A stretch of 39,141 bases of DNA from Myxococcaceae bacterium (GTDB taxonomy: Bacteria > Myxococcota > Myxococcia > Myxococcales > Myxococcaceae): NCBI GenBank assembly GCA_016793725.1, contig JAEUJP010000241.1, positions 1-39,141 of the forward strand, given 5' to 3'. Positions 27,388 to 33,961 of this stretch are shown here, in pieces (position 1 is the first letter of the stretch; each line of letters starts with the position of its first letter). Position numbers and translations under genes: made by a program. The notes beneath the pieces were generated by a model. The model searched no databases. It had not been told where the DNA came from and saw only the letters and a list, made by a program, of their open reading frames with translations.

Positions 27388-27885
27388 TCAGCCGCCGTCG
27401 CCGCCGTCGTCGGCGCCCGCGTCGCTGCCGGCGTCGACGCCCGCGTCGCGACCTGCGTCGACGCCCGCGTCGAAGCCCGCATCGACGCGCCCGGCGTCGA
27501 CCCCTGCGTCTACCCTGCCCGCATCGATGCCTGCATCGACCCGACCGGCGTCGACCCCGCCGTCGCGGCCGGCGTCGGCGACGCTCGCGTCGGGGCGGCT
27601 GGCGTCGTACACGCCGGCGTCGAGGTTGTAGTTGCCGTCGGGATCCATCGGGAACGCGGCGTCGTAGCCACCGTCGAACAAGAGGCACGCGCCGCCGCCG
27701 CACAGCTCGTTCGCCGCGCAGGCGACACACCTGCCGCCGCCTGCGCCACACTCGAAGAGGTTGGTGCCGGCGAGGCACTCACCGGCCTCGTCGCAGCAGC
27801 CCATGCAGGTGCTCGGGTCACACGGCTTCGTCGAGCCGCTGCAGGAGCCGACGAAGAGGGCGACGATGGCGATGGCTCGGCGCAT
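27388..27885 (-). CDS. Lipoprotein: one Cys module plus Asp-Ala-Gly tail
   Basis: From ATG 27885 the 165-residue product has a signal peptide and lipobox (VGSC, Cys15). It then has one Cys module (about 22-67: C-x4-C-x-GCC, GEC, ECGAGGGRC-x-x-C, C-x4-C), the same as in the five-module protein at 16777-17751. The last ~80 residues are a low-complexity run of Asp-Ala-Gly and Val/Arg-Asp-Ala-Gly units. The DNA of that run is a degenerate 6-18-bp tandem repeat and may vary in length between strains. The open frame extends upstream to 28098 but overlaps the next gene. Function unknown. Confidence 0.8.
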   Translation of the reverse strand: MRRAIAIVALFVGSCSGSTKPCDPSTCMGCCDEAGECLAGTNLFECGAGGGRCVACAANELCGGGACLLFDGGYDAAFPMDPDGNYNLDAGVYDASRPDASVADAGRDGGVDAGRVDAGIDAGRVDAGVDAGRVDAGFDAGVDAGRDAGVDAGSDAGADDGGDGG

Positions 27886-28650
27886 GTGGGCCTGAGGTTT
27901 TATCACCGGAGCTTCAGATCCATCGGGCCATCGAGCTCGATCTGCTTGCCGTCGATGGTGAGCTCGGCCTCGGCACCGTCGGGCAGCAGGAGCCGCACCG
28001 TTCGCCCGAGCTCGTAGGTCTTGCCCTCGACCAGTGCGGCGGTCGCGAGATCGTCGGTCTCGGCGAACACGGCGTCGTCTTCGACCTCGAGAAGCCACTC
28101 ACCCTCGCCGAGATCGCCGGCGTGAATGTAGGGCACCTTGGTTCGAAACGCGGGCGCGGGCAGGTTGCGCGGGCCCTCGAGCGGCGGGCCGTCGTGGCCG
28201 AGCTTGTCGAAGCCGTTTGGGGTGAAGAAGGCCTTGAAGTAGTCGCCGCTGGTGAGCTCCTTCGGGGCGAGCGCGCTCTCGGGGGTGAACTTGTTGGTCG
28301 AGTAGCGGGCGGCGATCGTGCGCGCGAGCGCCTCGACCTCGACGACCTTGCCGCCCTGCAGGGCGCGGCGCGGCAGCGTCGCGGCCTCGACGGTCGCCTC
28401 GGGCAGATCGCGCACGTCGACCGAGGTCTTGTGCAGCACCCTGAGCGCGCCGCCGAAGCACTCGAGCACGGCCCACTCTTGCACCTTGAGGTGATCGCCG
28501 GGCAGCAGCTTGGCGCCCACGCCGAGCGTGCGCGTCACGTTGCCGTCGTCGACGGTGACCGGGGCCGAGGCCGAGTGGAGGCCACAGACGGGGCCCACCG
28601 GCTCTTTTTTGCAGGCGGCGACGAGCAGCAGCGCGAGCGCTGCCGCTGAC

Positions 28651-31164: not shown

Positions 31165-32292
31165 ATGTGGCGCCTCGCCCTCGTGCTGCTCGTGGCCGCC
31201 TGCGCCTCGCCGGTGACCCAGCCGGTCTTCGACCCGGGCACCCACGGGGTCGTCAGGCTCCCCGATGCCGGGCCGCCCGACGCGGGCCCGTTCGATGCCG
31301 GGGTGCCGTACTGGCTCACCGTCTTCGACGACGTGCGCATTCAGAGCCCGAACGGCACGGGCGTGCGACCCGACGCCGGCCAGAACCTGCACGTCGCGGC
31401 CGCCTCCTTCTCGCTCACCGGCACGTCGTTCGAGCGCGTGACGCTGGTGGTCGAGCTCGCGACCACGTGCTTCCCCTTCGAGTCGTGGTCGTCGAACCCG
31501 CCGCCGATGGGCCACCGCTGGCCGGCCGACTGTGACGCGTTCGATCGCAACTTCGAGCTCGAGCTGCTTTCGATCGACGGCGGCGTCGACCACGAGCTCA
31601 TTCGCGCCATCACGCCGTTCGGCGGGCCGCTGCGCATCGAAGAAGACGTCACGCACGCGCTCAACTTCGGGCCGACCGGCCGCACGCTGCAGGTGACGAT
31701 ACCGACGTGGTCAGACGGCGCGGGCCAGGTGAGCGGCGCGAACGGCGGGTGGAACGTGACGGCGCGTCTGTACGTCGTGCCCGGCCGCCCTGCGCAGCGC
31801 GTGCTCGCGGTGGTGCCGCTCGTCGACGCCAATGACGGCCCCGATGCGGGTCGCACGGTCTCGTTCACGGTGCCGACCGGGGCGACGAGCGCGCGCCTCG
31901 AGTACCGCGTCACCGGGCACGGCGGTGGCCCGATCGACCCGGCGTGCATCGGGCCGGCCGAAGAGTTCTGCCAGCGCGCGCACCACCTCTTCATCGACGG
32001 CGCGAAGGTGAGGCAGCTGACGCCGTGGCGCAGCGACTGCGCGAGCCTCTGCACGGTGGCGCACTACGGCAACCCCGGCTTCGACTACTGCGTCGAGAAC
32101 CCGTGCGGGGCGATGCAGAGCGTGCGGGCGCCGCGCGCGAACTGGTGCCCTGGCAGCGTGACCGAGGCGATCGTGCTCAATGAAGCGGCGCTCGCGACGC
32201 CGGGGCCACACTCGTTCGGCTACGTGATCGACAACGTCGCGCCCGGCGGGTCGTGGCGGGTGTCGGCCGTGCTGTACGTGCTCGGCGACTGA
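31165..32292 (+). CDS. PNGase F-like peptide:N-glycosidase lipoprotein
   Basis: The 375-residue protein has a lipoprotein signal (LVAAC, Cys13) and a short Asp-Ala-Gly linker (34-46), then two beta domains that follow PNGase F of Elizabethkingia. The first has CDAFDR (123-128), matching CDEWDR, with Asp127 at the position of catalytic Asp60. The second has AEEFCQRAHHLFIDG, matching CAEWCFRTH, with Glu267 at Glu206, and NWCPGSVTE, matching GWCPGM. The third important residue, Glu118 in TETW, is Pro180 here (IPTW). PNGase F removes N-glycans from glycoproteins. This one would act at the cell surface, perhaps on prey or host glycoproteins; activity is uncertain given the substitution. It diverges from the tRNA. 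Confidence 0.8.
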   Translation: MWRLALVLLVAACASPVTQPVFDPGTHGVVRLPDAGPPDAGPFDAGVPYWLTVFDDVRIQSPNGTGVRPDAGQNLHVAAASFSLTGTSFERVTLVVELATTCFPFESWSSNPPPMGHRWPADCDAFDRNFELELLSIDGGVDHELIRAITPFGGPLRIEEDVTHALNFGPTGRTLQVTIPTWSDGAGQVSGANGGWNVTARLYVVPGRPAQRVLAVVPLVDANDGPDAGRTVSFTVPTGATSARLEYRVTGHGGGPIDPACIGPAEEFCQRAHHLFIDGAKVRQLTPWRSDCASLCTVAHYGNPGFDYCVENPCGAMQSVRAPRANWCPGSVTEAIVLNEAALATPGPHSFGYVIDNVAPGGSWRVSAVLYVLGD

Positions 32293-32305: not shown

Positions 32306-32731
32306 TCACGGCTTCAGGCGCCGAATCAGGTGCTGCCGCTCGGCCGAGATTTCTTTCGCCGTGCGGAAGCCGAGACGCCGGAACAGCGCGGCGGGCGGGC
32401 ACCAGCCGACGACCGAGTGCAGCAGCAAGAACAGCTGCTGCGCGCCGAACAGGTACAGCCAGCGCCGGTCTTTCAGCTGGCCGAGCAGCAGCGTCAGCGA
32501 GCCCGAGACGGCGAAGTTCGTCATCAGGGCGCGGTCGACGTCCCACTCCCGGTCGAGCGCGTCGATGCGGGCGATGATCGCCTCGCGGCCCTTCTTCACG
32601 GTGCTCGCGACCGCGGCCTGGGTGGCCACGTCGATCTGATGGTTGACCGTCTCCGACGAGTGCTCGCGTACGCGGTCGTGATGGCGGGGGTCCAAGTAGC
32701 TGGTGAAGGCGTCGTTCGCTGCACGTGCCAT
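32306..32731 (-). CDS. Small membrane protein, DUF2892-like
   Basis: The 141-residue protein has a polar N-terminal half (about 1-60) and two hydrophobic segments (about 70-85 and 92-112) around KDRRWLYLF. It ends with GWCPPAALFRRLGFRTAKEI. A GWCPP-x-x-x-x-RRLG-x-RT-x-x-E ending follows the inner-membrane DUF2892/YgaP-tail type proteins as I know them. Function unknown. ATG start; the 3' end is 13 bp from the convergent PNGase-like gene. Confidence 0.7.
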   Translation of the reverse strand: MARAANDAFTSYLDPRHHDRVREHSSETVNHQIDVATQAAVASTVKKGREAIIARIDALDREWDVDRALMTNFAVSGSLTLLLGQLKDRRWLYLFGAQQLFLLLHSVVGWCPPAALFRRLGFRTAKEISAERQHLIRRLKP

Positions 32732-32809
32732 TGGGGCGGTTCGGTTGCAGCGGTCAGGCCAGCACGAGCCCCTGCGCGGTTACGCCGCGAACGGCGTGGC
32801 GAAATGGCC

Positions 32810-32878
32810 CGCATGGTCATTCTTGCGCATGGTCATTTATGCATCGGAGGCCGAGGGTCGACGGGGCGCCGATATAGT
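32810..32878 (+). promoter_or_regulatory. 12-bp direct repeat and -10-like box before the LuxR-type gene
   Basis: CGCATGGTCATT occurs at 32810-32821 and 32826-32837, offset by 16 bp, followed by ATGCAT. TATAGT (32873-32878) sits 10 bp before the GTG start at 32888, close enough that the mRNA would be leaderless or nearly so. No convincing -35 is seen. The repeat may be an operator, possibly for the regulator itself. If the true start is instead ATG 32804 or 32813, the repeat is coding. Confidence 0.35.
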
Positions 32879-32887
32879 GACCGGCGC

Positions 32888-33961
32888 GTGTCATCTTTGA
32901 TTCGTCGTCGAGCGGACCTGAGGCCGCTGTACGAAGCAGCCGTTCAGCCGGGCAGCCCGAGGGAGCTCCTCGCGGGCCTGAGCACGGCGGCAGAAAGAGT
33001 GCTCGAGGGCACGGTCGGTCTCGGCATTCAGCTGCTCGAGGTCGTCGACGGCGTGATCCACTCGGGCGAGATGCTCGGGGTGGGCAGCGTGGGAACCCCG
33101 CACCGCTTCGACGACGCCGTCGAGGTCTCGAACCAGCTCGGGTTCGTGGTGCAGGCGCTGTACGGGACGCCGGGCGCGAAGATGGGCTCCGAGCGGCTCG
33201 AGCGCATGGGCGTCTCCGCGAGCGACGTCTTCAGCCGATGGGGCGGCATCGACGTCGGCGGCATCACCGCGCGCGTTTCGGAGCACGATCACATCGCGTT
33301 CATCTTCGAGCTCGACCGGCGCTACCGGTTCAGCCCTCACGAAGAGCGCGTGCTGAACCGGGCGAGCCTCTACCTGCAGCTGGGGGCGCAGGCTCGGGCC
33401 GCCGGCGAGGTCGGCGGCGCGCTGTCTTCTCGCGGCGAGCTGCTCGAAGGCGTCGCACCCCTGCGACCGGCCGCAGTGTGGCCGGCGCTGTGCTCGGGCC
33501 GGTACAGCCTGGCGGCCCGCGGCCGCGGCGAGACCCTGCACTATCGGCTCGTCGAGAACCCGCGCGACGTGTGGCCGCGCCGCGCGCTGTCGCCGATCGA
33601 GCGCAAGGTGATGGAGCTCTCGGCCCGCGGCTTGTCGGGCAAGCAGCAGGCGGCCCAGCTCGGGCTGCGGCAGACGGTCGTGTCGGCGAGACTGGCGGAG
33701 GCCACCGCGAAGCTCGGGCCAACCTCGGTGCTCGCGGCGATTCGGGTGGTGGGCGGGCTGCTCGAGGCGCCACGCCGGCATGTGCTCGAGCGCGTGACGA
33801 CCGCCGAGCGCGACGTGCTCGACCTCGTGTGCCAGGGCCTGTCGAACGTCGAGATCGCCGAGGCGCGCGAAACGTCGGTGCGCACGATCGCGAACCAGGT
33901 CGCCGCGCTGCTGCGCAAGCTCGACCAGCCGAGCCGTCGCGGGTTGCTCGCGTTCGGTTGA
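32888..33961 (+). CDS. Regulator with two tandem LuxR-type HTH domains
   Basis: The 357-residue protein has an N-terminal sensor-like region (about 1-200) with no recognised domain. Two consecutive LuxR-type helix-turn-helix domains follow. HTH1 is 234-280 (LSPIERKVMELSARGLSGKQQA); HTH2 is 303-352 (TTAERDVLDLVCQGLSNVEIA, SVRTIANQVAALLRKL). HTH2 keeps the classical LuxR pattern better. GTG 32888 is chosen because the following region reads as a plausible sensor. In-frame ATGs at 32804 and 32813 would add about 25-28 low-complexity residues. No N-terminal phosphoacceptor Asp is visible. A tandem HTH is unusual; most LuxR regulators have one. Confidence 0.75.
   Translation: MSSLIRRRADLRPLYEAAVQPGSPRELLAGLSTAAERVLEGTVGLGIQLLEVVDGVIHSGEMLGVGSVGTPHRFDDAVEVSNQLGFVVQALYGTPGAKMGSERLERMGVSASDVFSRWGGIDVGGITARVSEHDHIAFIFELDRRYRFSPHEERVLNRASLYLQLGAQARAAGEVGGALSSRGELLEGVAPLRPAAVWPALCSGRYSLAARGRGETLHYRLVENPRDVWPRRALSPIERKVMELSARGLSGKQQAAQLGLRQTVVSARLAEATAKLGPTSVLAAIRVVGGLLEAPRRHVLERVTTAERDVLDLVCQGLSNVEIAEARETSVRTIANQVAALLRKLDQPSRRGLLAFG

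What the first reader, a model, noticed from the sequence alone, without database searches (positions are those of the whole stretch)
31165..32292. Bacterial lipid-anchored PNGase F homologue missing Glu118
Two of three key PNGase F residues are conserved (Asp127 = Asp60, Glu267 = Glu206). The flanking C-D-x-x-D-R, A-E-x-x-C-x-R-x-H and N-W-C-P-G motifs also agree. The Glu118 position (T-E-T-W) is Pro180 (I-P-T-W). Known: PNGase F deglycosylates eukaryotic-type N-glycoproteins. A surface-tethered version in a soil or predatory bacterium raises the question of its glycan targets.
Basis: partly seen in the sequence, partly recalled or inferred. Interest (0 to 1): 0.6.

Follow-up and report, generated by a model that had tools for sequence, protein, structure and literature searches.

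The report
Myxobacterial lipoprotein PNGase, PNGase F superfamily
The gene encodes a lipid-anchored enzyme of the PNGase F family, which cuts sugar chains off glycoproteins; the "missing" glutamate is missing in almost all of its relatives, including proven active ones, so this is a sound but largely ordinary find: a conserved, untested myxobacterial branch of a known enzyme family.

Summary
ORF 31165-32292 (+, 375 aa) is a lipoprotein with a PNGase F-type amidase domain: Pfam N-glycanase_C E=2.2e-18; hhalign against PNGase F 98.5%, E=2e-15; the AlphaFold model (pLDDT 89) matches PNGase structures in its first 18 Foldseek hits (TM 0.73-0.74 to PNGase F). Asp127=Asp60, Glu267=Glu206 and Pro180 at the Glu118 position are confirmed. 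The emphasis on "missing Glu118" does not hold. The gene has at least 46 orthologues, mostly named Myxococcota (Sorangium, Polyangium, Nannocystis and others). In all 47 sequences Asp60, Arg61, Glu206, Arg248, Trp251, the His of GHG and the lipobox Cys are invariant. The Glu118 column is P/T/S/N/A/D/G and never Glu. Active enzymes also lack this Glu: PNGF-II has Gly and fish Ngly2 has Ala. A myxobacterial PNGase (Labilithrix) has already been expressed and assayed. New here: a myxobacterial lipoprotein subfamily with its own loop, T[WY]xDGxGxVSGxxGGW, whose invariant Asp184 could take the place of Glu118 (inference). The genome has no STT3-type oligosaccharyltransferase, so substrates are probably foreign glycoproteins. 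Likely active PNGase; new member of a known kind.

The parts
31165..32292 (+). PNGase F-superfamily lipoprotein gene, 375 aa
31165..31203 (+). signal peptide and lipobox VAA-C13 (Cys13 at 31201-31203)
   Evidence: sequence; the Cys aligns in 47 of 47 orthologues
31204..31311 (+). low-complexity Pro/Asp/Ala/Gly linker (residues 14-49), a tether between anchor and domain
   Evidence: 36 aa here; median 37, range 10-101 in orthologues
31531..31548 (+). C-D-A-F-D-R motif; Asp127 (31543-31545) = catalytic Asp60, Arg128 = Arg61
   Evidence: Asp and Arg 47 of 47
31699..31752 (+). subfamily loop I-P-T-W-S-D-G-A-G-Q-V-S-G-A-N-G-G-W: Pro180 (31702-31704) in the Glu118 column, Trp182 = Trp120, invariant Asp184 (31714-31716)
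31852..32274 (+). PF09113 N-glycanase_C domain
31918..31920 (+). His252 of the T-G-H-G-G motif (counterpart of the His on the beta-face of GlcNAc-1 described in PMC12381499)
31963..31965 (+). Glu267 = catalytic Glu206
   Evidence: 47 of 47
32134..32154 (+). R-A-N-W-C-P-G motif (Arg324 = Arg248, Trp327 = Trp251)
   Evidence: 47 of 47

Best explanation
The protein is an exported lipoprotein whose catalytic domain is a PNGase F-type peptide:N-glycanase (amidase). Asp127 is the primary catalytic residue at the GlcNAc-Asn amide, with Glu267, Arg128, His252 and Trp182/Trp327 holding the core chitobiose. It releases whole N-glycans and turns the Asn into Asp. [quoted passage not shown] the conserved loop after it, with invariant Asp184, probably takes over whatever stabilising role is needed. 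The enzyme most likely acts on N-glycoproteins of other organisms (fungi, protists, plants, invertebrates) met during saprotrophic or predatory growth. Shown: homology, fold, active-site residues, lipobox, conservation, no STT3 in the host genome. Inferred: catalysis, the Asp184 role, surface display, substrate class.
For: PF09113 E=2.2e-18, and in all 47 members. Profile alignment to PNGase F across both domains, E=2e-15. AlphaFold pLDDT 89, pTM 0.88. Foldseek hits 1-18 are all PNGases, E 3.8e-19 to 5.6e-12, TM 0.73-0.74 to PNGase F, with a large drop after that. Asp60, Arg61, Glu206, Arg248, Trp251, His252 and nine of ten Cys invariant in 47 sequences, the other 46 only 43-57% identical to this one, so the active site is under strong selection. 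The three substrate-contact features in PMC12381499 (aromatic-Asp-positive; His plus Glu; Trp/Tyr over the second GlcNAc) are all present: F126-D127-R128; H252 and E267; W182. In fish Ngly2 the Asp60 and Glu206 equivalents are essential (PMC12753239) while the Glu118 position aligns with Ala. No STT3 in the own genome. One GH92 alpha-mannosidase with a lipobox-like leader is in the own genome.
Against: No activity has been shown for any member of this exact subfamily; whether the assayed Labilithrix PNGaseLl belongs to it could not be checked. From memory (not found in the held papers), E118Q mutants of PNGase F itself lose most activity, so losing this acid needs compensation. PF09112 is not recognised. 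No N-glycan gene cluster surrounds the gene. GH20 is absent and GH92 does not track with PNGase genes across the order.
Confidence: 0.8

Rival explanations
1. Active PNGase whose open site at C3 of the core GlcNAc makes it tolerant of, or selective for, core alpha1,3-fucosylated (plant or invertebrate) N-glycans, like PNGF-II or PNGaseL. This is a more specific version of the best explanation.
For: Non-acidic residues at the Glu118 position in 46 of 47 members, as Gly380 in PNGF-II (PMC9522356); six non-type-I PNGases have open space there and act on plant or invertebrate substrates in various degrees (PMC12381499).
Against: The compensating Glu419 loop of PNGF-II is not recognisable here. The subfamily's longer loop with Asp184 could fill the same space. 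PMC12381499 notes that much of the honeybee substrate carries no core fucose, so that activity is weak evidence.
Confidence: 0.35
2. Pseudoenzyme: a lipoprotein lectin that binds chitobiose or N-glycan cores without cleaving, because the third acid is gone.
For: Glu118 absent in all 47.
Against: The catalytic Asp and Glu with their partners are invariant in 47 of 47; a lectin would not be expected to keep all of them. Active PNGF-II and Ngly2 lack Glu118 as well (PMC9522356, PMC12753239).
Confidence: 0.07
3. Housekeeping amidase acting on the bacterium's own N-glycosylated envelope proteins.
For: Lipoprotein location; wide occurrence across Myxococcota with no linked catabolic genes.
Against: No STT3/PglB-type oligosaccharyltransferase in the own genome, which is about 90% complete; patchy distribution, 6 of 195 genomes of the phylum held.
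Confidence: 0.07

Closest known systems
PNGase F (EMTypeI, Elizabethkingia meningoseptica; 1PNF, 1PGS)
   Same: two-domain jelly-roll fold; Asp60, Arg61, Glu206, Arg248, Trp120, Trp251
   Different: Glu118 replaced by Pro; longer loop after Trp120 with invariant Asp; lipobox and linker; extra invariant Cys296 and Cys309; longer insert between the first two Cys; His252 where PNGase F has Trp
PNGF-II (4R4X) and B035DRAFT_03341 PNGase (7ZGN), type II
   Same: best Foldseek hits include both; no Glu at the 118 position; GHGG motif
   Different: no N-terminal bowl domain; no visible Glu419 equivalent; 18-19% identity in the structural alignment
PNGaseLl, Labilithrix luteola (PMC12381499)
   Same: myxobacterial, catalytic module plus flexible linker only; most genes of that study were described as orphans
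   Different: sequence not available here, so membership of the same subfamily was not tested
Fish acid PNGase Ngly2 (9LWG)
   Same: shared PNGase domain and catalytic pair; Ala in the Glu118 column
   Different: thioredoxin-like and PA domains; Asp followed by His instead of Arg
Bacteroides group 1 PNGase BF0811 (3KS7)
   Same: best sequence match in the PDB
   Different: Asp at the 118 position, type I activity (PMC9522356)

Membership tests
PNGase F superfamily (PF09113 / IPR015197) | C-domain profile match above the curated cut-off | tested here: met
   66.8 bits against 25; 47 of 47 orthologues match at E <= 0.01
PNGase F superfamily (PF09113 / IPR015197) | catalytic Asp (D60) and Glu (E206) in the right register | tested here: met
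PNGase F superfamily (PF09113 / IPR015197) | two-domain jelly-roll fold | tested here: met
PNGase F superfamily (PF09113 / IPR015197) | N-domain profile PF09112 (accessory; not used to define the superfamily) | tested here: not met
   no hit; hhalign and fold nevertheless cover the N-domain
PNGase F superfamily (PF09113 / IPR015197) | release of N-glycan with Asn to Asp conversion | not testable with these tools
   needs an assay
Type I PNGase (PNGase F, BF0811) | Glu or Asp at position 118 | tested here: not met
   Pro180; 1 of 47 orthologues has Asp, none Glu
Type II PNGase (PNGF-II) | Gly at position 118 with compensating Glu419 | tested here: not met
   Pro here and no Glu recognisable at the matching loop
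Type II PNGase (PNGF-II) | N-terminal bowl-like domain (most members) | tested here: not met
   only a short low-complexity linker before the catalytic domain
Ngly2-like acid PNGase | thioredoxin-like N-terminal domain | tested here: not met
   only a linker precedes the catalytic domain; long Ngly2-like proteins exist elsewhere in Myxococcales
PNGase A superfamily | PNGase A profile match | tested here: not met
   no Pfam hit above cut-off besides N-glycanase_C
Bacterial lipoproteins | signal peptide with lipobox ending in Cys | tested here: met
   VAAC here; Cys aligned in 47 of 47

The most novel reading that the evidence does not exclude
A myxobacterial, cell-surface PNGase subfamily in which the third acidic residue of PNGase F has moved to an invariant Asp (Asp184) four residues along in a new loop, opening the site to core-modified (for example alpha1,3-fucosylated) or fungal N-glycans of prey.
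Probability: 0.25. Interest if true: 0.5.

Novelty: new member of a known kind. Interest (0 to 1): 0.3.

Why it matters
It shows that Glu118, often listed among three key PNGase F residues, is not a family-wide requirement. It also names about 47 single-domain myxobacterial PNGases with an invariant alternative Asp as enzymes to test for plant, insect or fungal N-glycan release. Predatory myxobacteria are rarely considered as consumers of N-glycoproteins.

Tried and rejected
A single-sequence scan of genome contigs found no relatives; the five-sequence alignment found 46. NCBIfam gave nothing. No conserved gene neighbourhood: the family recurring most often beyond the gene itself is a Ser/Thr kinase in 11 loci, a common myxobacterial gene. 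GH92 is present in the own genome but does not co-occur clearly with PF09113: 6 of 19 genomes with it, 21 of 126 without, and it was not found in the other three genomes of the order that hold this subfamily. GH20 and STT3 were not found. No paper giving Glu118 mutant activities was found. Model coordinates are not exposed, so Asp184-to-active-site distances could not be measured. The quick tree puts the subfamily on one side of a branch with only 70% support and joins three short divergent sequences (L005, L023, L025) to it; long branches make that join unsure.

Full report
Observation. The ORF at 31165-32292 (+) encodes 375 aa with a short hydrophobic signal peptide and lipobox (VAA-C13), a 36-residue low-complexity linker and a catalytic domain. 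Pfam N-glycanase_C matches with E=2.2e-18. Sequence searches of the PDB find PNGases 3KS7, 4R4Z/4R4X (PNGF-II), 7ZGN and 4QHB, and the subfamily profile also reaches PNGase F itself. Profile-profile comparison with PNGase F aligns both domains at 98.5% probability, E=2e-15. It sets Asp127=Asp60, Arg128=Arg61, Pro180=Glu118, Trp182=Trp120, Glu267=Glu206, Arg324=Arg248 and Trp327=Trp251. The PNGase F reference sequence was checked against the PDB chain at full length.

Fold. AlphaFold2 on residues 46-375 with 46 orthologues gives pLDDT 89 and pTM 0.88. Foldseek against the PDB returns PNGases in the first 18 places (E 3.8e-19 to 5.6e-12), with TM 0.73-0.74 to PNGase F; the next hits, PHM monooxygenases and others, start at 3e-6 with TM of about 0.3.

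Distribution. The own genome has one PF09113 gene. A scan of 84,980 species genomes with a five-member alignment found 46 orthologues, 43-57% identical to this one. Record titles name Sorangium, Polyangium, Nannocystis, Myxococcaceae, Polyangiaceae and other Myxococcota, besides some MAGs labelled only Deltaproteobacteria, Proteobacteria or bacterium. G023, from the same family as the window's genome, carries the same protein as the Myxococcaceae MAG HOG29, which places the window near Myxococcaceae. Within the phylum set of the genome search it is patchy: 6 of 195 genomes at E <= 1e-8, one of them (G045) a different, type I-like form. The gene stands alone, between a divergent tRNA-Arg and CCA-adding enzyme gene and a convergent small membrane-protein gene. 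Orthologue neighbourhoods share nothing of note.

What Glu118 means. In 47 sequences the column holds P14 T13 S8 N6 A4 D1 G1. In the wider superfamily alignment it is equally variable, with Asp in the type I-like L010 and L085. PMC9522356 reports Gly380 in PNGF-II, a pocket for core alpha1,3-fucose, and another Glu (418 or 419) doing the work of Glu118. PMC12753239 shows fish Ngly2 to be active, with the Asp60 and Glu206 equivalents essential, and its sequence aligns Ala with Glu118. PMC12381499 expressed six diverse PNGases, including one from the myxobacterium Labilithrix luteola described as a catalytic module with a flexible linker, and describes open space near C3 of the core GlcNAc in all six models, with activity most often on high-mannose and insect glycoproteins. 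Missing Glu118 is thus the usual state of the superfamily outside type I.

What is specific to this subfamily. Directly after the Glu118 column lies a loop longer than in PNGase F, T-[WY]-x-D-x-x-G-x-V-[ST]-G-x-x-G-G-W, in which Asp184, Gly187, Gly191 and Trp196 are invariant. Asp184 is the only acid in this loop present in all 47 and is my candidate for the role of Glu118; this is inference from conservation alone. Nine of ten Cys are invariant, one of them the lipobox Cys; Cys102/Cys123, Cys261/Cys269 and Cys292/Cys328 match the PNGase F disulphides by position, and Cys296/Cys309 look like an extra pair (inference; the PNGase F pairing is from memory).

Biology. All 47 proteins have an aligned lipobox Cys and a variable tether of 10 to 101 residues; the residue after the Cys is Asp in only 3 of 47, which under the E. 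coli sorting rule would favour the outer membrane, although the rule in myxobacteria may differ. STT3 was not found in the genome, so own N-glycoproteins of the PglB type are unlikely and the substrate is probably foreign. A GH92 alpha-mannosidase with a lipobox-like leader is encoded elsewhere in the genome, which would fit use of high-mannose glycans, but it does not track with PNGase genes across the order, so I give it little weight.

Verdict. A real, very probably functional PNGase F-superfamily lipoprotein, belonging to a conserved myxobacterial subfamily whose members have not, as far as the held literature shows, been characterised as such. New member of a known kind; interest 0.3.

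Noticed in passing
L011-L021, L076, L077, L080 and others (e.g. L013): Many Myxococcota carry a second, longer PNGase (about 580-640 aa) whose PNGase domain is far closer to fish acid PNGase Ngly2 (9LWG, E=7e-46) than to PNGase F (E=1e-4), with an N-terminal region that looks thioredoxin-like by eye; in a quick tree Ngly2 falls inside this group (SH-aLRT 95). It could bear on the origin of the animal enzyme.
   Followed up: partly
L005, L023, L025: A third, short and divergent PNGase-like group (GDxVDR, CEEFC, REGWCPG) that has lost the Trp120 region.
   Followed up: partly
G000:C42:7404-8774 (L119): GH92 alpha-mannosidase with a lipobox-like leader (AAAC) in the window's genome.
   Followed up: partly
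27388-28098 (-): ORF ending in a long run of D-A-G repeats (GVDAGRVDAGIDAG...), the same low-complexity style as the PNGase linker.
   Followed up: no
32306-32731 (-) and 32330-33961 (+): The listed LuxR-type ORF overlaps the small membrane-protein ORF on the other strand, so its true start is probably further downstream.
   Followed up: no
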